Below, in pieces: positions 11,657 through 64,000 of a DNA stretch of 64,000 bases (positions are counted from its first letter, which is position 1; each line of letters starts with the position of its first letter). Source of the DNA: Saksenaea vasiformis B4078 (taxonomy: Eukaryota > Mucoromycota > Mucoromycetes > Mucorales > Saksenaeaceae); contig JNDT01001856.1 of NCBI GenBank assembly GCA_000697055.1, positions 29,981 to 93,980 of the forward strand. The letters are read 5' to 3'. Below the pieces are notes generated by a model, which did no database searches, had not been told where the DNA came from, and worked only from the letters and a program-made list of their open reading frames with translations. The position numbers and the translations under genes were made by a program.

Positions 11657-12686
11657 CTATATTATATCATGTTGCGTGCATCCTTGATTCGTGAAGTCAA
11701 GGTCTCTTCTTCGAATGAGTCTCTGGAGTTTCAATTTACTTTTGATCACTGACCAGAATTTCTCGGTGCGATTGAGCTCCGGCGAATAAGAGGGAAGGTA
11801 AATGCGCCAATAACCACGGTTTTGAATATACTTAGCGATAACGTCATATTTGTGAATAGGCGCATTGTTCATCACCAAGTAGTTGCCTTCGAATTTCTGG
11901 TGCTCATCCATCACGTCCAACGTGCTTGTGATAAACTTGAAGTAATGCCCAGTGACGATTTTGTTTTTGCTTGTGGAATCGATTTTGCTGTTTCCAGCAG
12001 CCTTTCATTGCTTGGAAGAGGGCTGAGATTTCGGCAATCTTGCCGATCTTTGCACAATACCGTAGGGAAAAATGGCGCCAAGGATTGTGGTTATTTCCGC
12101 CCTCGCCTTGGGAGCAGTTACCGTTGTGCAAATGCCTTTCTTCGATCATGCAGAGCTCCGTTTCAGATTCATGTGGAAAGCCGATTTGTCAATGAAGACA
12201 AAACTGCTGCAGTAATTCATGTCGCTGTCCAATCAGTGTGTCACCCAGTTGAATCGCTCGTCGATCCTGGCCGGCGAGTTTCTTTCAATTGAGTGGAAAT
12301 GTGATTTTTTAAGGTAATTCTACACTGTTCGGCAGTGCAGTTATACAGGGTGATTTTCGACACCTGCAGTCCCGCAAACTGTTTTGGCAAACTGTCCATC
12401 ATCTGATCAAGGACAAAGGGCGAATGTTCATCCAACAAATTTGTCAAAAACGCTACGTCTTCTTCCTCAAGTCGGACGGCCTTCCAACTGGACACGTACT
12501 TTCGCTAGGTCTACTGGGTACTCCACCATCAGGATCAGAATTTTCTTGAGCGTTTTCTACCCCTATCTGAGTAGTGCACGGCGCAATCTTGAGTTCAATG
12601 GCTGTCTCTCGAGTGCATTTGCCCTGTTCATACACCATGAAAGAAAGACATTCTTTCTGTGAGCTGTGTACCGTGCTTGCGGTCAT
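11657..12686 (-). mobile_element. Decayed Tc1/mariner-type (DDE_3) transposase
   Basis: Minus-strand remnant reading N- to C-terminal from 12686 to 11657. The N-terminal helix-turn-helix part appears as YEQGKCTRETA and a second helix region near 12430-12310. The catalytic core shows FVFIDKSAFH (first Asp, near 12195), ITTILGAI, a NNAPIH motif (near 11863) where the family has DNAPIH, and YSPELNRTEKFWS (third acidic residue, near 11760). Three in-frame stops (12235, 12148, 12007), at least one frameshift near 12270, another in the HTH part, and Asp-to-Asn at the second catalytic position show the copy is dead. It lies between the two secreted poly-Asp genes. Terminal inverted repeats were not found. 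Confidence 0.85.
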
Positions 12687-38718: not shown

Positions 38719-41700
38719 TTAATGCTGGGCACCACTTCGCTTCAAAAGAGTCACCGTCATGTCCAATGTCGGTAAAGCCTTTGCATGTGGTGGCGCCAGT
38801 GTTGGTGTGGGTAAGAATCCAGCTTTGATGAGATAAGCATAATAAAGACCGAGAAGGTCATCACCCATGAGTGGACACTGAATGCCGTCCTTGGCTAAGA
38901 TGGTCTGCGTGTTTGTGTCATCCAACTGCGCGCTCTTGGTGGACGTCGGAAGGTCGTCCAAAACAAAATGAAGCAGCGGGAAGAGAGAGTGATCTTTTGC
39001 TTGTAACGTGTACTCCATCAATTTGTTTCGCCAGTCGATGTACTCTGTCTGCTGACAAGTGTAGCCAAATGTCGGCAAAGTACCAAACAGTTGGTTGAAC
39101 GAGAAGTTGACGGGATGTGTCACCTGGAAGACCCCCAGTTTGCTTGCTTCTTGATCATACAAGGCTGCAGATGCTACGACGGAAGCAACGTAGTCCACAG
39201 AGCAAAGGTTGACGTTATTGGAAATGGACGGAATGTAGCCCAGTTCGATGCAACCCTTGAGTAAACGCCAAATAAAATCATCCGTGTTGGTCACGCCTGT
39301 GTGTGAATCACCTAGGATATAGCCGGGTCTGATAATTGTGGCAGGCATACCACGACGCCTTGCCTCCATGATAAGTCGTTCCGCTACCCACTTGGATTGG
39401 CCATAGCCAGAATCAAGTCCTGTGCGAGAGCCTTCCAGTCCGTCACTTTCCAGAACACGTTGACGCTCACCAAACTCTACGTAGTGTGGTGTGTCAAGCA
39501 CGGATGTGGATGAAACAAAATGGAAGGATTTCTGCTTGACTTCCGAAGCCAGACGCATTGCCCATAACGTGCCAACCACATTGGGTCCGCGCAGTTTCTG
39601 ATACGGATAAACCCAGTGCACAAGAGCGCCATTGTGGATCACACCATCTGCCTCTGTCACCATGCGTTTCCAGTCACTTTCGGAAAGACCGAGACGATCG
39701 CTTGCCAAATCACCACAGAGTGCTTCGATGCGGCTGTCTTTCTCCCATTCTTCCTGCCAAACCAGGTGGCCAACAGCTGCTTGTTTCACACGAGCGTAGG
39801 CTGCCTTGCTGTCCTTTGCTCGAACGATACAGATCACCCGCGTCTGAGCATGTGCCAGTAACTTGCTGAGAATAAATGCACCAAGGAAACCCGTGGCTCC
39901 CGTCAGCACAAATGTACGTCTTCCCTCGGAAACAACCAATGGATCATAGGACGCCTGAAGGAACTCGGAAGCCAGAATGTCCACATCCGCGCTGTAATCG
40001 ACTGTCTGCTTCTCCTTTGCTGCCTCCGCTGGCTTCGCAGCTTCTTGTGGTTGCTGTTCTGCCAATAACAGGTCACTCTCCTGCAGCTTGCTGACTTGTT
40101 GGGCTAATCCACGAATGGTAGGCTCGGCAAAAACAAGACCTAGCGGCGCATCCACCTGGAATCTCTGTCGGATTTCAAAGATCAGCCGAGTAGCAATCAG
40201 AGAATGACCACCGATATCAAAGAAATCTTCATCCAAACCAATCACTGGTTCGGGTGAGGGTAGCAATTTTTGCCAAATGTCGTGGATCGCCTGTTCGTTC
40301 GGGTTCATGTTGAGAAGCTTAGCTGCAGGTTGTTGCTCAGGCTTATTCTGGAACTGTGCAGTGTCAGGGAATGGCAAAGCGTTCTTGTCAACCTTTCCAT
40401 TGGGTGTGAGCGGCATACGGACGAGAGGGACAAAGACAGAGGGAATAGCATAGGTTGGCAATTTCTTCTTCAGATAGTCGCGCACGTTTCGGATCAGTTC
40501 ACGGTACTTGCGACGAGAGCGAACGTCGGCAGGATTATCATGATTCTCTTCATCATCTGCTTCGTCTGTAGCACTAACAAACCCAGAGTCGATGTCTTGG
40601 ACAGGGACAAAATAAGCTACCAAGGTCTGCTCTTCGTTCTTGTCACGTCGGACCAAGGTCACGTTTTCTCGGATCAAAGGATGCTGTGACAGATGGGTGT
40701 CAATTTCACCCAGCTCAATGCGGAAACCGCGAATCTTGATCTGGTCATCCGCACGACCCGTGCACTCGACATTACCATCCGGACGATAGCGGCCAAGATC
40801 ACCGGATCGATACATACGATCACGCTTGCCCTTCCAGAATGCCTTCCAATCATCACCCTTCACAACCGCTTCTACTGCGTTGCTGTCCTCCTCATTAGGA
40901 TTGTTAACAAACCAGTTACAAATAAACTTCTCGTTGGTAGCGTCAGGGAGTTCAAGATAGCCTTCAGATAAACCAGGTGCACGGACGTAAATCTCGCCAA
41001 TCTCGCCGACAGCACACATCTTCGTTCGATCATGACGATTGACGACCAAGAGCTGCACGTTCACCATACCCTTTCCTGCAGGGATGACTTCCTTCTGTGA
41101 ACTTAAGAAAGCGGGGTGGTTTGAACGAGAAGGCACCACGTAGTAGGATACGGATCGCTGGGTCTCGGTTGTGCCATACATATTGATGACGGCGACGTTA
41201 GGAGCAAACTTTTGAATACGGGCTGCATCACGCTTGGTTAGGATATCGCCAACAAAGAACGCGTTCCGGAGAGCTGGGATCTCCGTCTGAGCATGCGATG
41301 ACAAGAGTTGACCCATAGCTGGCGTGAGATGGGTGATGGTGACTTGAGAGCGTTGCATCCATTCGGCTAATCGTCCAGGGATGCCGATATCTTCAGCGGT
41401 TGGAACATGTAACTGAGCACCAAAGAAGAGAGGAGTAAAAATATCACGTTGGATAGGGTCATGGGCAATGCCGGACAACATGGTAAATTTGTCTTCGCTG
41501 GAAATACCAAAGGTCTCTGCCATCCAGGGATAAAAGTGCGTCAAGGAGAAATGACGTCCACGGACACCTATATATAAGAAAGCAAAGGTGAAGGTTATTT
41601 CCATGCTTCTCTTTTCTTGCTTGTATCCTTACCCTTTGGAATGCCCGTGCTACCGCTGGTGAAGCTCAGCGTGCCGATACTATCGGGACCAATGACAATG

Positions 41701-43158: not shown

Positions 43159-44089
43159 AATGGTGGAAAGGACAATAAAAGAAAAGAAAGTTACGGATTG
43201 GAAAACGTTGAGAGAAAATGAAACTTTGCCTTTTAAGCCTTGCGATCATTTATGCCGTGGAGAGTCCAAAAATGGCAATCGCGATGAGATGATGTATATA
43301 CTCCGCTAGATGGAGGCGATCCAGATTATCGCAAGGGTTCATCATCAACCAGTGTGCAGTAATCCTTCAGTCATTCATCAATACAAATCAATTGAAAAGA
43401 GGGCATTTACGTAAGGTTCGACGCAGTTATTATCCCTTGTCATGTCAAATGCCATGTAAGGAGAACAAACTTTCGTTTGCTAATCAGAAAAAAAGTTGCC
43501 ACTCTAACGACATATATGGGCTTGTGGATCACCCAACAATCACGCGCTTACTTAAATCCTACATCCGCCTGGTGAAGTGTAAACGACGATGATATCTTGG
43601 GAAACCTGCGTCCATTTGAAGTTAAAATCTCCGCTTTTTCATTTCCACTTTTGGCAAGATAATCAGATCCTAATGTCTTCCTCTTTTTCTTAATACAGCA
43701 GTACGAAAAGCTGCAGTTGCCTGCAGCTAAAGGCTTTTGGGAAAGATGGCACCATCTCTAAACATCGAGCACGGATAACATGCCACACCTGATGCAGACC
43801 AATGGATCAGCACGCCACCCATATCTGAACCCTTCCCTTCTTTGGCCTTCCTGTAAATGAAATGATGGACACGAAACACACGCTGAGTGCGTGGGTTGCT
43901 AATTTATACCTTTCTTAGAAACGGTTGCAAACCATTTCAGGAATGCAGCCGACACAATGTCTTTGATATGCAAACATGGCAACTTTTTTTTTGACTCAGA
44001 ATGAACAAGCAGTGACTTGCTATCGGGGACACAAACAAAAAAAAATAGGTGAGATCGTCTCGTCTACCTTTTCTTTGTTTCAGCCTGCG
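43159..44089. promoter_or_regulatory. Divergent LYS2-HIS1 promoter region
   Basis: A 0.93-kb spacer from which LYS2 (minus) and HIS1 (plus) diverge. Apart from the TGACTCA site at 43992 no binding site was identified. A shared control under amino-acid starvation is inference. Confidence 0.6.
43992..43998. promoter_or_regulatory. Gcn4/CpcA-type site (TGACTCA)
   Basis: Perfect TGACTCA, the consensus of fungal Gcn4/Cpc1 bZIP activators, 92 bp before the HIS1 start. HIS1 is a classical general-control target in other fungi. The heptamer can arise by chance, but the location is telling. Confidence 0.6.
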
Positions 44090-45137
44090 ATGGACTACGT
44101 GAAAGATCTTGACAACAGACTTTTATTTGCTGTGCCCAAAAAGGGTCGTCTCTATGAACAATGCTTGCAATTGCTGACCGGTTCTGATATCCATTTCAAC
44201 CGAAAGACGCGTCAAGACATCGCGCTTTGCACCAATCTCCCCATTGCTCTTATTTTCTTGCCTGCTGCAGATATTCCTAAATATGTTGCTGAGGGAAATG
44301 TGGATCTGGGTATTACTGGACAAGATATGGTGATGGAAAACGAAGTTGGCGATAAAGTTGACGAAATTATGCCGCTTGGATTTGGCAAATGCCGTCTTTG
44401 TGTTCAGGTTCCTGTTAAGGGCGACTACCAGACCTTGGAATCCCTTGTGGGCAAACGCATTGTTACCAGTTTTGATGGATTTGCACGTAAAATCTTTGAT
44501 AAATTGGACCAAGAAAACGGAACAAAGACCACCATTAACTACGTCTCTGGTTCCGTTGAAGCTGCATGTGCTCTTGGCCTTGCAGATGGTATCAGTTAAG
44601 TGCTCAACGAAATGACCAGCGAGAGACGACTGACCCATTTTCCCTCTCTGTCTCTCTCTTTCCTTTTTCTTTTTGTGTTATACAGTTGATCTTGTTGGTA
44701 CGTAAATGCTTTGCTCCTATTTGGTGTTTTCTTTATGCTTAATTGTTTCCTTTCCTTTAGAATCGGGTGAAACTATGCGTGCAGCTGGCCTCCACGATAT
44801 CCATACATTGATGACGACGGAGTCTGTTCTTATCGCCAACCGAAACTCCTCGCATGCCAATCTCGTTGCTAAAATTGCCTCCCGCATCCGTGGTGTCATT
44901 ACCGCCAACAAATATGTCCTTTGCACCTACAACATCCCCCGTAGCAACCTTAGCAAGGCCGTGCAGATTACACCCGGCCGTCAAGGTGCTACCGTGTCGT
45001 CCCTTGACTCGCACGAAGGATGGGTCGCTGTGTCCTCGATGATTGAGAAGAAGGAAAAGGGCGAGATCATGGATCGATTAACTGAAGTTGGCGCTTCTGA
45101 TATCCTGGTCACCGCATTCACCAACTGCAGAGTCTAA
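44090..45137 (+). CDS. HIS1: ATP phosphoribosyltransferase
   Basis: First and feedback-regulated step of histidine synthesis (ATP + PRPP). Three exons: 44090-44594, a 12-nt microexon 44686-44697, and 44761-45137, giving 297 residues, the same length as yeast His1. Motifs: LLFAVPKKGRLYEQCL, YVAEGNVDLGITGQDMVMEN, GKRIVTSFDGFARKIF, the PRPP-binding stretch SGSVEAACALGLADGIIDLV (rebuilt only when the microexon is included) and the C-terminal regulatory domain (KYVLCTYNIP, VSSMIEKKEKGEIMDRL). The start at MDYVKD was preferred; an in-frame ATG at 43976 would place the TGACTCA site inside the coding region. Confidence 0.96.
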
Positions 45138-45458
45138 ATAAGTTCAATCCTCTGTCCTTTCTTTCCTCCGTCTTTCTCCCCTCCTTTTTGTTTTGTGCAT
45201 AAACGGTACTCGTAGAAGAAGAAAACTTATCATGATGCACACATATCAAGCGAAATAGAAGAACAGCATCCCTCCTATACATATATATATATATATATAA
45301 GGAAACAAAGGGAAAAGCATGATTGGAAAAAAAAAACCTAGCGTTTGCTATTGTTCATTGAGTTGATGGCACAAAAATGAAGAGAACTCATCTCATTTTT
45401 TTATTAAGCGGAGGAAAATGGCAAACTCTACCCAAAAGACACGGCTAGTGTGGTTTTT
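45138..45458. other. Convergent 3' spacer with (TA)n tract
   Basis: Between the 3' ends of HIS1 and the RACK1 gene. Contains a run of about 10 TA units at 45279-45299. No gene was seen. Confidence 0.65.
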
Positions 45459-46711
45459 TTAGAGGTTGTGGGTCACCTGCCAGACGCGGATGTGGTTGTC
45501 AGTGTAGCCAGAGAACAAAGTGTGGCCATCAGCGGACCAGGCGACAGACAAGCACTCGGGATCGCGAGCCTTTCTCTTGCCAAGCTGGCTGAATTCGGGA
45601 CGGAGGTCATCGACGATGGTCTTGGTCTCGAGATCCCAGACCTTGATGGAGGAGGCGGTGGCAGCGCAAAGCCAGTAGCGGTTGGGCGAGAAGGTAAGGG
45701 CGTTGACAACATCGTTAGCCTCAAGGGAGTACAAGTGCTTGGACTCGTTCAAATCCCAAAGCATGACAACACCGTCCTTGCCAGCGGAAGCGCAAAGAGA
45801 GCCATCGGGGGAGATGGTAACAGTGTTGACATAGCCGTTGTGACCGATGAAGTTAGTTCTGAGCTTGAACTTGGTAAGATCCCAGACCTTGACGATCTTG
45901 TCCCAACCACCAGAGACGATGACGGGGTTTGCAGGGTTGGGAGAGAAGCGGACGCAAGAGACCCACTCGGAGTGACCATCCTCGGTGATGTTGTACTTGC
46001 ACTCACCAAGGGTGTTCCACAACTTGATGCTCTTGTCACGAGAACCGGAGACGATCTGACGGTTGTCGGCCGAGAAAGAGACAGACAAGACATCGTTGGT
46101 GTGGCCAACGAAGCGGCGGGTAGTGGTACCGGTGTTCAAGTCCCACAAACGGAGGGTCTTATCCCACGAGGCAGACAAAGCGAACTGACCATCGGAAGAG
46201 ATAGCAAGGTCCTCAACGAAGTGGTTGTGGCCCAAAAGAGACTTACGGGGGACACCGTATTCAACCTCATTTCTACACATCGCCAAAGAGGGTTACTATG
46301 CTAAATTCCTTCACCAATATGCTGAAATAGTTACCTGGTAAGATGCCAGACGATGATGGACTTGTCTGAAAATCAAAGAGAAAAAAAAACAGAAAAAGTT
46401 CTACGTTCAGCGAATGCATTCATTTGGAAACTTCAATCCTACCGCGGGAGGCAGACAAGACCATATCAGGAGCCTCAGAGGTGGTAGCGATGGCAGTAAC
46501 TAAAGTAATAATATAATACTGAGCATGGATGTTCTGCTGTCAAGGTACAAGCGCGCAACGCGTTTTCGAGCTTACCCCAGTTGCCGTGACCTAACAAAAA
46601 AGACAAAGATTTTAGTATCGGTTCCTTCCATCCATCCATCCATCCATCCATTTCTCTCTGTTTCTCTATCAATCACCTACCTTTAAGAGTACCGCGCAAT
46701 GAAAGAGCCAT
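45459..46711 (-). CDS. CPC2: RACK1-type WD40 protein (Asc1/Cpc2)
   Basis: Seven-bladed beta-propeller on the 40S head near the mRNA exit, scaffold for kinases; its fungal homologue is tied to cross-pathway control. Five exons: 46711-46681, a 15-nt exon 46590-46576, 46499-46443, 46365-46335 and 46272-45459, 315 residues. Rebuilt N-terminus [22 protein letters not shown] repeats such as [41 protein letters not shown] and [15 protein letters not shown]-terminus [15 protein letters not shown]. Full length. Intron 1 contains a TCCA microsatellite. The antisense strand is open over 284 codons through codon bias and is not a gene. Confidence 0.96.
46627..46650. repeat. (TCCA)6 microsatellite
   Basis: Six TCCA units in intron 1 of the RACK1 gene. 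Low-complexity feature, likely polymorphic. Confidence 0.9.
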
Positions 46712-58929: not shown

Positions 58930-60960
58930 GTTTTCTTCTAATAGAAAAAAAAGAAGAAGAAGAAGAAGAAAGAGCCAAAGTTATACTGGTTTTATAGCTG
59001 GCCGGTTTATCAATGGTGTGGTTTATATGAGCGTGTGGGTTTTAAAATGCCGCGTGCAAGTCAAAAGGTTTGCCCCTCCTAGATACAATGTCTCCCGACC
59101 GATCACGTAAAAATAAGCCTAGTATGTTGCTTCCAGCTGTTCAGCTATGGTCAATAGAAAGGCTGGTGTGCCTATGAAATGCGGAAGACTACCAGGCTGT
59201 TCAGGCCATGACCATCGTCATAATCATCGTCCTTTCTATGTCTTCTGCATTCTCATTTAAGTACAGCTGTCAACCCATCTGCAGCCTCTCACAGTGAAGC
59301 ATGTCACCATCGCTTCGTGCCTCGGGCATTTATTATCCGCATATGGGACGTGTTGTGTGTCCTGACACACCGCCAACCACAACCCCAGGGACGCAGCGCG
59401 CACGTATCACCACGTTCTGTCGGAAGTAAAAGCCGTTGGCCTATGTCTCCCTCTCTCCCCACCATAGCCAAAGCCTATGAAATTGAGAAATTTAAGAGCA
59501 TGAATGGAAAGAAACAGGGTGCTACTACGATACTTGCTTCGAATGAACAGCTTCCCGTAAAGAAAGACCTTTTTTTCCCATGACAAATGTAGGTATTTTT
59601 GTTTCAGCAAAACGCCGAAGTATATTCAGGGACATTGAAACTGCAGGTGGGTTCCGTGCAATGATAAATAAAGGAAGGGTGTGATTAAGAATCCATGCTT
59701 TTGACGACCACTGGACATCACGACAAGGGAACACACGCAGACCGGTGAGCAATCATAGTTAGACCTGATACAGTCAACAGGCCTCCAATCATACCTGCAA
59801 CGGCCGTATCATAAGATTATCCGGCGGAAACTTTGTAGACAGCCTAGTAGTAACTTAACCTTGGATGAAGCGATTAGCATCCATACAAACGCTCCCTATT
59901 GCTTCAATGGCAACATGACATACTGGGAAACATGATGATATAAAAATGTTCTTATCACAATAAAGCGTATACATTTTTTTAGAACATTCTTTATTCAGTT
60001 CATGATCAACGTGTAAATATATACACACCTAGATCTATCCAATAACCTGACGATACTTAGACGACGAGCATTCATTTTGCCAGATTGTCAGACCACAGTG
60101 CCACTGCAGCCGTCCACGAGGACGCAGTCAGCTACAGTTACCAATAAACAAAACCAAACGAGGCTGTTCACCTAGAGCATTACCTAAACAACAGCTGATA
60201 GACCCGCTACCCTTTTCTTTGTTCGCCGTCTTTCCTAAACAGTACAATGAATGCAATGGCCGCTGTCAGACTGTCGCATAGACATTTTAAAGGTACACAT
60301 TTTGACTTTAGGAAGAGTTGATATGAATGAAAGAAATAAATAGATACATGCATATATTGCGGCTATGCGGGATTCATGCATGCCTCGACATAGCCATTCT
60401 GAAATCTTGATAGAAGATGAAGAAGTACCTGGTCCAGCAGCAGGAAATAGTTCTATTTTCGTTTCTTTTCCTTTTTTTTCCCAATCCGAATTTGTTTGAC
60501 AATGCCGTGGCGGCATTCATCGCGATGCATACTTTCACAGAGATGCATAACGCTTACCACTCGGATACGTTGGCTTCTTCCAATTTTGTCACAGCTCAAA
60601 GTAGCATCATGCATGTCAACAGATGAATCCAAAATTCAATATTACTGTCTGTCATAACAAGACCTTCGCGCTGGACCTACAAAATATCGATTTGTTTTAT
60701 GCTATTAGCCTTCACGGCTCTAGCTACTGACGATCTCCCAATCACATAGACTCTAAAGAAAAGCAATATGCATTGAAAAGCTTCCACCACTTTAACGAAT
60801 GACACTCTAGCTGGAATGATGTAATATGACTTTCTCCATCTGTGGATGATCTGCTTTGCTCGAGTTTGTGTCGAGAAATCAACCAGATGAGGGGGTTACC
60901 GCTACACGCACCCCACCGGGCGCACCCCAATGACGTCAGTACAGATAGTCAGAAAAATTT
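58930..60960. other. Accessory intergenic region
   Basis: The left end is the GH5 promoter (CTT repeats on the minus strand at 58941-58970). Further right only short frames; a minus-strand piece near 60516-60420 (basic KKGKETK or, in another frame, GLGKKRKRNEN) could be an exon remnant. Nothing was identified. Confidence 0.4.
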
Positions 60961-61015
60961 TGTTTCTGCTTACCGTACGAAACCCGTGCCTAACAGGAGG
61001 CTAGATGACAGCTCT

Positions 61016-62251
61016 TTAACTGTCTGTGAGAACTTGTTCTTGCACTGTTTCTGGCGGTCGTGATGGCCTCTGAAGCGCTGCTGGACGAGAGTCAATGTTA
61101 CATCCAGATCGAATGCACGCCTCCAGTATTCGTCGCATGTTTTTTCCAGCATTCACGTCTCGATTCCACACCTGTTGGGACTATGAGAAGACATTCTATA
61201 ATATATTGAGAACCTACAAGTTGGCGTTCTCCATTGGTATCCGAAAGGCAATGTTGGCAATGTTGGCACATCCGTACCGGATACAATATTGACTGCCACG
61301 ATTGCAAACCTATCGTCAAGTTAGTACATGATACAATTTCAGGCTAAGTTGATAGTACCGTAAGTTGTTCTTGCGGGACATACTGAAGAATAGCAGAGCA
61401 CATTATTCTCATTGTCCACGCAACGTTGTCTTCTTCGTTTATCAGTTGCAAGTCGTAGGTATTTTTTTCTATCAATTTCATGAGCGTCAGATGAACACGT
61501 ACTGAAGACCATGTATACGAACTTGTGTCTACACCTCTGCCCGGCCTGACGAACTTCGACCGTCTCATTGTCGCATATACTGCACACTTTGCTTGTTCGG
61601 TATTCGTCAATACAGACAACTAGTGCCTTTTGGGACAGGATTTGGCGGAAACCCTAAGGATGCGATTTAGCAACAGCATGTTTAGATTTGTACATACCTT
61701 GATTGGTAAGGGCGCCTGGCCATGCATCGGCCGTAAATCTGCGTCGCCAAACGCTACTATCGCCGGCCTAGTATCTTGTTGCTCGAACGCCCTAATCCAC
61801 CGTCTTTCTCTCTTGCGCACTCTTTTCTTATCCTTATGTACCCATTGCAATGGCTATACCAATTGTTACAAACTATGCCACAGCCTTTCATGACCTTACA
61901 ATGTCTGCCGCTCTGTATTTCCCAATTAATTTGTCTGCGATACAATGTAGTGCCATCTTCCGTTGAGCAGCAAGGCGCTCCCGAGTCTCTCTGTGGCGAT
62001 AGCTAGAATTGAACTCTTTTATTCTATTTCCATATATCATTAGCTTGAACAAAATTACAGCCGCTTAAGTACCTGCACGATTCTTGACTCAGAGTTCTGA
62101 TATAAGCAGCAAACTCTGGTAAACTGCCAACTTTGGGTGGGGTATCACTCAGCCGTGTGTACACATCTTGGATCTCTGCATCCTCTCTGTTCCGAAGTTC
62201 TTGTTGCCTGGCCCATGCAAACATCGACGCCACCCTAGATTGATACATCAT
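61016..62251 (-). pseudogene. Decayed Fanzor (TnpB-related) sequences
   Basis: Minus-strand pieces of RNA-guided-nuclease relatives. Piece A: PAIVAFGDADLRPMHGQAPL (near 61755), donor GTATGT at 61697 and acceptor CTTAG at 61654, then VVCIDEYRTSKVCSICDN (61620-61570), i.e. the RuvC Glu motif and first zinc-ribbon CxxC; it ends at a stop at 61339. Piece B: an acceptor-like GACGATAG at 61311 followed by VCNRGSQY, and in a shifted frame VWNRDVNAGKNMRRILEACI (61171 on), the RuvC-III Asp motif, to a stop at 61016. An upstream piece (62251-62024, WARQQELRNREDAEIQDVYT) may be N-terminal. A and B do not join in phase and each lacks parts, so at least one copy, perhaps two, has decayed here. Confidence 0.75.
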
Positions 62252-62369
62252 TAGGTTTAGAGATACAAACAGTATCTACCACTTACTAATAGTGCCTATT
62301 GGTAACGGAGTACTGTACTCTTGTCCAAGGCTTGGCCCAGTACTAAGGCGCAATCTGGAAGGTGAGACA

Positions 62370-62705
62370 GATCTTCACAATCAACTGTACCTGACGTCTT
62401 TAATAGCACACCTCAAGTGTCAGAGAACCTTGACACTGAAGAAACTGGTCATAACGAACAGACTGCAATCGAATCTTTGCAAGAAGACGACTCCATAGCA
62501 CAGCAAGACGAAGGTAAGATGTACACTTGTAGCCTCCAACAGCTCTTTAATTTGTTTTTCAGATTTTCCGATCCCATCTACTGTGCCAGAGATGACCATC
62601 GCTCTCACTCGGACTGCATCTGTAGGTACCAAAAGGAGCAAAGGAAAAAGAACCAATTATGCAGCTGAAAAGAAGTCGAAGAAACGCACCACTAGAAGAG
62701 ATTAA
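62370..62705 (+). CDS. 3' exons of an unknown protein with basic tail
   Basis: Two plus-strand exons in phase: about 62371-62513 (SSQSTVPDVFNSTPQVSENL, acidic Glu/Asp/Gln-rich after it, donor GTAAGA) and 62563-62705 after TTTTTCAG (DFPIPSTVPEMTIALTRTAS, then a Lys/Arg-rich tail KRSKGKRTNYAAEKKSKKRT ending at TAA). The tail looks like a nuclear localisation signal. The 5' part is not clear: a stop precedes the first exon near 62367, and an upstream exon may lie at 62290-62360. Family not recognised. It sits between the decayed and the intact Fanzor sequences, on the opposite strand. Confidence 0.45.
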
Positions 62706-62864
62706 GATAGAATCTTGTACTAGTTTCTGAAGTTAAATAAAGAATAGTCAGCCAATAATGAAAACTATCATATCCAAAAGCAGCCGTCTATTACGGGAGT
62801 TGGGTCCAATAGAAAATTCGCTACCATTATGTTAAATCCAATCAGATACTGTTGTTGTCCCAAA
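62706..62864. other. Short spacer
   Basis: Nothing recognised; AATAAAGAATAG at 62738 may be the poly(A) signal of the preceding plus-strand exons. Confidence 0.5.
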
Positions 62865-62875
62865 GAGTCACTGAA

Positions 62876-63112
62876 GGTTCCTGATGGTTACGAAAATGCA
62901 TGTTAGTGGATCCTGTAGGATCCTTCAGGACACCAAATAGTTATATACTGGATACCGCTGGTTCCTAAAGGTTGCTATATGACTAGGTTTCCGTAGGATA
63001 CTGAGGGTTCCTGTTGGTTACTTGATTCCTCAATGACTATTTTTTTTGTTAGAGAAAAATAGTCATTGAGGAACCGAAGTCAATAAGGAACCACTGGGAA
63101 CCACGAGGAACC
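62876..63112. repeat. Inverted GGTTCC / GGAACC array around a 19-bp hairpin
   Basis: GGTTCCT-type words at 62876, 62960 and 63006 (with variants GGATCCT near 62915 and GATTCCT at 63024) face GGAACC words at 63070, 63087, 63097 and 63107. At the centre a perfect 19-bp inverted repeat (63026-63044 with 63055-63073, arm TTCCTCAATGACTATTTTT) encloses a 10-nt loop. The block begins 160 bp past the stop of the Fanzor gene on that gene's strand. Confidence 0.85.
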
Positions 63113-63274
63113 GCTTCCCGTAGTGCAAGTATCACGAGCGGAGTTACACATTAACTGTTTAGCATTATGTCCATAAATCATCAAGCAAGGACTTACCGAA
63201 ACGAATTCTGAAGCAAAAAATTAGTGTCACTGATAAGAATTTTCGTCAAAGATCATAGTACGTACTGTAGAAAT

Positions 63275-64000
63275 CTAAACCCTTGCGGGTCCCGGATTCA
63301 CAGCGATGATACGGTTAGGGCGACGGAAAGCGCTTCGCCTTCCACCTCCGTCCCAAATAGACTGTGCAATGTAAAACGTATTTTTGCTGGCATTGACGTC
63401 GCGATTCCACAACATTCCACAGTTTTTACAGTCTTGAATGCCGTGGTGGTTGACGTTGTCAGCCGTAGTCATATTCTGCATGTTCCTTGTTTTACATTGA
63501 TGGCAAACCTATCGATCACGTCAGACAAAAACATTACATGGCTGATAAGTATTTGCCTGTGAGGTATAGTATTCGTCAATTTTCAAAACCAACGCTTCAC
63601 CACGGGCTTCTCGTCTCTTCAAGCTTCCCCATAACTTGTTAACTGCTGCTTTGCAATGTCCCTTATAGCAACTGTTGTTCCCAAACGTGCCCGCCCCAAA
63701 GACAAGTAAAGGCATTCTTCCATCGTTGCATGGATTTGACTTTGCTGGTTTCCATTTCCTTTTGCGGCACGTCATATTGACCGTGGAGCGTACAGCAGAT
63801 GTCGGCTGCTCTGGAATCCTGTCATTATACAATAGTTAACAACTTTGACTTAAATATTCAATGATTTTTCATGTCCCACCTGCCACTATTTTTCTTCTTG
63901 TATTTCTTGCGTTGCTCACGGTTCTTTTTCCTTTTTTTCCTGTTTGTACTTCGATGCCTCCGTTTCCGACGGTTGTATTTTTTGCCTCTGTTTATCAGTA
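63275..64000 (-). CDS. Fanzor-type TnpB-related nuclease, C-terminal part (runs off window)
   Basis: Minus-strand exons: right edge to 63880, 63818-63557 and 63508-63275, all in phase; the 5' part lies beyond base 64000. Exon 1 is very basic (NRGKKYNRRKRRHRSTNRKK, then REQRKKYKKK). Exon 2 has TCRKRKWKPAK and MPLLVFGAGTFGNNSCYKGH, then KIDEYYTSQ (RuvC-II Glu). Exon 3 completes the zinc ribbon, VCHQC...QDCKNC, and RuvC-III WNRDVNASKNTFYIAQSIWD, closing with GRRSAFRRPNR. The last intron has a non-standard GC donor (GCAAAT) but joins TSQ to VCHQC as expected. No stop or frameshift is visible, so this copy may be functional. Fanzors are known RNA-guided DNA nucleases; guide RNA and activity here are inference. 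Confidence 0.82.

What the first reader, a model, noticed from the sequence alone, without database searches (positions are those of the whole stretch)
63275..64000. Apparently intact Fanzor nuclease gene at the right edge
Seen: RuvC-II (DEYYTSQ), two CxxC zinc-ribbon pairs (CHQC, CKNC) and RuvC-III (NRDVNASKN) lie in exons that join in phase without stops. Known: this motif set defines the TnpB/Fanzor family, whose eukaryotic members are RNA-guided DNA nucleases. Inference: this copy could be active in a Mucoralean genome.
Basis: partly seen in the sequence, partly recalled or inferred. Interest (0 to 1): 0.8.

Follow-up and report, generated by a model that had tools for sequence, protein, structure and literature searches.

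The report
Decaying Fanzor copy cut by contig
The right edge holds the last quarter of a real Fanzor (TnpB-like RNA-guided nuclease) gene of a fungal transposon family, but the rest is missing and this copy looks worn out, so it is an ordinary member of a known family.

Summary
The motifs are real. On the minus strand, window 64000-63275 gives 204 codons in three exons without an internal stop, matching Pfam PF07282 once the last intron is removed (4e-11). The contig ends at window 64000, so about 570 of 774 codons, RuvC-I included, are absent and "intact" cannot be shown. Ten other places in the genome are at least 90% identical. The closest one that runs on (C651, identical over 61884-64000) has RuvC-I 'AIDPG' but an in-frame stop ahead of it; two others, C184 and C569, are fully open. 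The window lineage has 10 amino-acid-changing against 3 silent private codon changes and has lost the Pro of a GRP motif kept in the 10 other distinct sequences compared. The same element carries broken IS630/Tc1-mariner-type transposase pieces. Verdict: the C-terminal part of a Fanzor gene, probably Fanzor1, in a mariner-type element of a Mucorales fungus near Apophysomyces; probably a decaying copy. Side result outside the window: sister copies and diverged Fanzors here carry N-terminal CCHC zinc knuckles, which I did not find in the papers searched.

The parts
63880..64000 (-). Partial internal exon (Lys/Arg-rich, LINRGKKYNRRKRR...), cut by the contig end
   Evidence: open frame; contig C409 ends at 93980 = window 64000
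63819..63879 (-). 61-nt GT-AG intron
   Evidence: splice sites and phase; GT in 10 of the 11 copies read, C486 reads GG (C651 itself)
63557..63818 (-). Exon with RuvC-II region, DEYYTSQ (Glu six residues before the first CxxC)
63509..63556 (-). 48-nt GC-AG intron
   Evidence: GC donor in 5 of 11 copies (window, C62, C651, C184, C569), GT in 6
63275..63508 (-). Last exon: C4 zinc ribbon (CHQC, CKNC), RuvC-III NRDVNASKN, stop TAG
   Evidence: PF07282, E 4e-11 when joined to the end of the preceding exon
63126..63274 (-). Conserved 3' non-coding stretch of the element; homology to most other copies stops at 63126
   Evidence: no unusually stable RNA fold (z +1.1 to +1.5 in three copies)
60929..64000 (.). 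3.07-kb duplicated segment shared with C62:1-3062 (99.06%) and, from 60986, C651:1-3006 (99.2%)

Best explanation
This is the 3' quarter of a spliced Fanzor gene, probably Fanzor1, carried by a multicopy DNA transposon of the IS630/Tc1-mariner type in a Mucorales fungus close to Apophysomyces. Shown: the C-terminal RuvC-II, zinc-ribbon and RuvC-III frame; ten sister places; the whole gene in a sister copy (two zinc knuckles, a long N-terminal half, RuvC-I 'AIDPG', RuvC-II, zinc ribbon, RuvC-III); broken transposase pieces in the same element. Inferred from the family: intact members are RNA-guided nucleases whose guide RNA comes from the element's 3' end and which favour retention or spread of the element by cutting matching DNA. 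Inferred from the sequence: the window copy is most likely a decaying, non-functional copy.
For: Frame and motifs. Contig end. Copies. Model of sister C651 with RuvC-I and one internal stop. Two open copies, C184 and C569; frameshifts in six others, C431, C457, C486, C664, C359, C572. dN/dS 0.16-0.68 over 21 copy pairs, 20 of 21 at or below 0.39, so past purifying selection; against that, 10 amino-acid-changing to 3 silent private changes in the window's codons. GRP motif altered only in the window sequence, 1 of 11 distinct sequences. Homology to C184 and C431 stops in the window about 150 bases before the end with the inverted-repeat-like sequence. Transposase homologues: 21 of 28 hits carry PF13358 or PF13565. 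Fanzor1 in mariner elements is known (PMC3627910, passages).
Against: The window copy's own 5' part is unseen. C651 may not be its continuation: by BLAST the window differs from C651 at 15 and from C62 at 19 positions plus gaps, all but one left of 61884. Thirteen private codon changes are few, so relaxed selection is suggestive only; the count over the whole C651 coding sequence is 8 silent to 19 others, the stop included. Loss of the 3' end is not special to the window: the C359 copy stops earlier, and C569 and C457 diverge soon after. No RNA data; no target-site duplications established; no tree.
Confidence: 0.78

Rival explanations
1. The window copy is an intact, active Fanzor; its 5' part lies across the assembly break and is open.
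For: No lesion in the 204 codons present; two related copies are fully open; the family shows purifying selection.
Against: Nearest copy that runs on has a premature stop; 10:3 private changes; altered GRP motif; element stops short of C184's 3' end.
Confidence: 0.15
2. A Fanzor domesticated as a host gene.
For: Past purifying selection.
Against: Ten other places at 90-100% identity, transposase pieces in the element, other repeats beside it; lesions in most copies read.
Confidence: 0.03
3. Bacterial TnpB from contamination or recent transfer.
For: PF07282 also rings in 6 of 14 prokaryotic control genomes.
Against: Introns, DPG plus displaced Glu, and the two nearest proteins are from Mucorales; a host gene on the same contig is fungal.
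Confidence: 0.01

Closest known systems
Fanzor1 of Tc1/mariner elements, e.g. PGv-1 and PUl-1 (Bao and Jurka 2013, PMC3627910; passages and section 12 seen)
   Same: Fanzor motif set and a mariner-type transposase in one element; Fanzor1 families are also reported there from the Mucorales Rhizopus, Mucor and Phycomyces, some in MuDr-like and some in unclassified elements
   Different: Host near Apophysomyces; transposase broken in the copies read; N-terminal zinc knuckles in sister copies
Parasitella parasitica PpFz1 (PMC11423790; passages seen)
   Same: Fanzor1 of a Mucorales fungus; the paper reports cleavage of DNA in vitro
   Different: No chain named as PpFz1 among the 13 PDB matches of my model at E up to 10; PpFz1 has an insertion in RuvC, for which I did not test
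Guillardia theta GtFz1 (9cer) and Spizellomyces SpuFz1 (8gkh)
   Same: Weak match in the RuvC-II/zinc-ribbon part: E 0.0018 and 0.73
   Different: Hardly any sequence similarity elsewhere
Rhizopus azygosporus CU097_009585 (P0002) and Apophysomyces ossiformis EC973_007737 (P0001)
   Same: 35% and 42% identity over 63% and 59% of the sister-copy model
   Different: P0001 as annotated stops before RuvC-II; P0002 begins inside the second knuckle region and lacks its last Cys

Membership tests
Fanzor (TnpB superfamily) | D-X(125,275)-[TS]-[TS]-X-X-[C4]-X(5,50)-RD (Bao and Jurka 2013) | tested here: met
   Met in the sister C651 model: D459, 235 residues, TS, C4, 5 residues, RD. In the window only the part from TS on is present.
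Fanzor (TnpB superfamily) | DPG at RuvC-I and Glu six residues before the zinc ribbon (PMC10711439, passages) | tested here: met
   AIDPG in C651; Glu six before CHQC in window and C651. RuvC-I of the window copy itself cannot be seen.
Fanzor (TnpB superfamily) | Cas12f1-like TNB zinc ribbon PF07282 | tested here: met
   43.4 bits against cut-off 26.3 with exons joined; 24.3 bits for the last exon alone
Fanzor1 (as against Fanzor2) | Place in the Fanzor1 clade; carried by non-IS607 transposons | tested here: inconclusive
   Mariner-type transposase pieces in the same element, but non-IS607 elements with Fanzor2 also exist and no tree was built.
Active RNA-guided nuclease | Complete open reading frame with D-E-D triad | tested here: inconclusive
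   Window copy lacks its 5' three quarters; C651 has a premature stop; C184 and C569 are open
Active RNA-guided nuclease | Structured guide RNA at the 3' end of the element | tested here: inconclusive
   3' stretch conserved but folds no better than shuffles (z +1.1 to +1.5, three copies)
Active RNA-guided nuclease | Guided DNA cleavage | not testable with these tools
   needs biochemistry
IS630/Tc1-mariner element | DDE transposase, terminal inverted repeats, TA target duplication | tested here: inconclusive
   Transposase homology met (21 of 28 hits with PF13358 or PF13565); imperfect 48-bp inverted match, 70.8%, in C184, nothing comparable in C651; TA duplications not established

The most novel reading that the evidence does not exclude
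The Fanzor lineage to which this copy belongs carries a conserved N-terminal module of two CCHC zinc knuckles (C-x2-C-x4-H-x7-C each), shared by widely diverged Fanzor families in this genome. It could bind the guide RNA or the nascent transcript, an architecture I did not find in the Fanzor papers searched. The module lies outside the window, in sister copies.
Probability: 0.35. Interest if true: 0.45.

Novelty: new member of a known kind. Interest (0 to 1): 0.2.

Why it matters
As it stands it is one more Fanzor copy, useful mainly as a caution: a motif-perfect C-terminus at a contig edge does not show an intact nuclease. The wider family matters a little more. This genome gave 137 PF07282 matches at E 1e-3 or better with 150 of 388 candidates scored (the window's own copy is not among them, so the count is a lower bound), and holds copies with fully open frames. 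That makes it a fair place to study how Fanzor-bearing transposons multiply and die, and whether the zinc knuckles help to handle guide RNA.

Tried and rejected
Suspected a frameshift between DICCTLHGQYDVPQKEME (another frame) and DGRMPLLVFG. Set aside: the 11 copies aligned show no indel there, two related loci (L043, L044) read through to MPLIVFG in one open frame, and P0002 is compatible. Against that, L059 has the two stretches in different frames. A first PDB search with the wrong join gave nothing at E 1e-3; repeated with the corrected model.

Suspected C62 to be a haplotype of C409's end. Rejected: window 44000-45500 is single copy in the search and the shared segment ends at 60929.

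Suspected the host to be Apophysomyces ossiformis from P0001. Rejected as the same species: best exon identity about 60%; host protein 85% to A. ossiformis and 87% to Apophysomyces sp. BC1034.

Looked for a stable 3' RNA: none in three copies. Pfam named no transposase in the pieces tried; protein homologues did. No structure prediction was tried: by the tool's description spliced proteins are not accepted; P0002 could have been folded, but I judged a two-sequence alignment too thin.

Fanzor1 as against Fanzor2 was changed to inconclusive. In one search the C664, C486 and C572 copies dropped out because my stop pattern did not fit them or they end there.

Full report
WHAT IS IN THE WINDOW. The window is G000:C409:29981-93980 of a 38.7-Mb genome in 666 contigs, and contig C409 ends at base 93980, that is at window 64000. 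On the minus strand three exons (64000-63880, 63818-63557, 63508-63275) join to 204 codons with a single stop, the terminal one. The introns are 61 nt (GT-AG) and 48 nt (GC-AG). The frame holds DEYYTSQ, CHQC, CKNC and NRDVNASKN. Across the last intron the protein hits PF07282 at 4e-11, 43.4 bits against a cut-off of 26.3; the last exon alone reaches 24.3 bits.

THE FAMILY. A DNA search in the same genome found 26 matches; 11, the window included, are at least 90% identical over at least 714 of 801 bases: C409, C651, C62, C184, C457, C431, C569, C664, C359, C486, C572. N-terminal exons of the family are found in 12 places at 85% identity or more. Several of these places are contig ends, so the number of true copies is uncertain. 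C651 runs past the window edge. Its spliced model is 774 residues with RuvC-I (AIDPG), RuvC-II, zinc ribbon and RuvC-III, and one internal stop ahead of RuvC-I. Of the copies compared with it exon by exon, C184 and C569 cover the coding sequence (2325 and 2322 of 2325 positions) without stop or frameshift; C431 covers 2322 with a one-base insertion and stops; C457, C486, C664, C359 and C572 cover about 2000 and each have frameshifts; C62 and C409 cover 617 and show no lesion there. The GC donor of the last intron is found in five of the eleven (window, C62, C651, C184, C569), GT in six. In C184 and C569, and in C431, the first intron also has a GC donor.

IS IT A FANZOR? The C651 model meets D-X(125,275)-[TS][TS]XX-C4-X(5,50)-RD: D459, 235 residues, TS, C4, 5 residues, RD (definition from passages of PMC3627910). 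It has DPG and a glutamate six residues before the zinc ribbon, the pair that Yoon et al. call the fingerprint of Fanzors (passages of PMC10711439). Against 5.8 billion proteins (4532 candidates scored) two hits passed 1e-3, both from Mucorales: P0001 (Apophysomyces ossiformis, 42% over 59%) and P0002 (Rhizopus azygosporus, 35% over 63%, PF07282). Matches to solved Fanzors are weak: GtFz1 E 0.0018, SpuFz1 0.73, no chain named as PpFz1. I built no tree, so Fanzor1 rather than Fanzor2 is likely, not shown.

THE ELEMENT. Upstream of the Fanzor gene, C651, C184, C569 and C431 hold pieces of a transposase in several frames. Three pieces of the C431 copy found 28 proteins among 658 candidates; 21 of the 28 carry PF13358 or PF13565, and some are named Tc1-like or transposase. 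C184 has an imperfect inverted match of 48 bases, 70.8%, between its end regions; C651 has none comparable. In the window the homology to C184 stops at 63126, about 150 bases before that 3' end. The 3' ends differ among copies: C359 stops earlier than the window, C569 and C457 diverge soon after, C184 and C431 run on. The element is therefore best read as a mariner-type transposon with a Fanzor passenger, a known pairing; target-site duplications were not established. The 3' stretch folds no better than shuffled sequence in three copies (z +1.1 to +1.5), so I have no evidence for a guide-RNA structure.

IS THE WINDOW COPY INTACT? It cannot be seen whole. Window 60929-64000 is shared with C62:1-3062 (99.06%) and, from 60986, C651:1-3006 (99.2%); C62 and C651 differ at 3 of 3006 bases. 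From 61884 to 64000 window and C651 are identical, and C62 differs from both at one base, so C651 is the best proxy but not a proven continuation. Evidence from the window's own codons (the C651 letters were used, identical there): among codons where at least four of six other copies had clean letters and all of these agreed, there are 10 amino-acid-changing and 3 silent private changes; over the whole C651 coding sequence 19, the stop included, and 8. That is close to what I would expect without selection (my estimate, about three to one). Copy-to-copy dN/dS is 0.16-0.68 over 21 pairs, 0.20-0.33 for the six pairs with C651; the C-terminal half of one pair, C569-C359, reaches 1.11. One private change turns the proline of a GRP motif into arginine; 10 of 11 distinct sequences found in the fetched loci with a pattern open at that place keep proline. 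I conclude that decay is likely, not proven.

SURROUNDINGS AND HOST. To the left, window 62316-63120 belongs to another repeat (C493, 96%) and 60893-62312 to a third (C624 98%, C626 96%), which holds a second Fanzor-like gene: its zinc-ribbon piece reaches 18.5 bits against PF07282, below the cut-off, and P0002 matches it at 4.6e-4. A 961-residue host frame at 38722-41604 is 87% identical to alpha-aminoadipate reductase of Apophysomyces sp. BC1034 and 85% to A. ossiformis, so the host is a Mucorales fungus near Apophysomyces, not named further.

A SIDE RESULT. Sister copies begin with two CCHC knuckles, C-x2-C-x4-H-x7-C (PF15288 for the first, 25.3 bits, cut-off 22). Of five family loci read, four hold both and C431 holds only the first with exact spacing. 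An N-terminal query found 102 matches in the genome. Of nine diverged loci that I chose and fetched from these, five hold both knuckles with exact spacing and four hold one; the pattern occurs 0 times in six frames of the 64-kb window. Searches of the paper library for Fanzor with 'zinc knuckle' and with 'CCHC' found no paper, and 'knuckle' does not occur in the main texts held of PMC3627910 and PMC11423790. The library lacks most subscription papers, so this is not a claim of first description.

LITERATURE SEEN. Passages of PMC3627910, PMC10711439, PMC11423790 and PMC10432273 and section 12 of PMC3627910; other papers only as search listings. Yoon et al. state that some Fanzor transposons reach up to hundreds of copies in their host genome (passage), so the abundance here is not new in kind. 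How Fanzors help their transposon is taken from that literature and general knowledge, not tested here.

Noticed in passing
60893-62312 (minus): A second, different Fanzor-like gene (CIDEYRTSKVC, VWNRDVNAGKN), apparently cut at its 5' side where it meets another repeat; copies of the stretch in C624 (98%) and C626 (96%).
   Followed up: partly
L066, L067, L069, L087 and L088-L096: N-terminal CCHC zinc knuckles with the same spacing in this family and in diverged Fanzor families of this genome; both in five of nine diverged loci, one in the other four.
   Followed up: partly
62316-63120: A repeat rich in degenerate GGTTCC/GGAACC motifs with a roughly 60-bp inverted self-match at 63020-63080, directly beside the Fanzor element.
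   Followed up: no
L084 1396-3201 minus (C419) and L085 60-1418 plus (C525): Another Fanzor-like family with a long frame without introns (601 aa in the piece fetched, and 452 aa); the C419 copy reads ADPR, the C525 copy ADPG at RuvC-I.
   Followed up: partly
11993-12378 (minus): Remnant related to an IS630-type transposase (tblastn of P0003, 1.7e-10).
   Followed up: no
63556-63509; first intron of C184, C569, C431: Recurrent GC-AG introns in this transposon gene family.
   Followed up: partly
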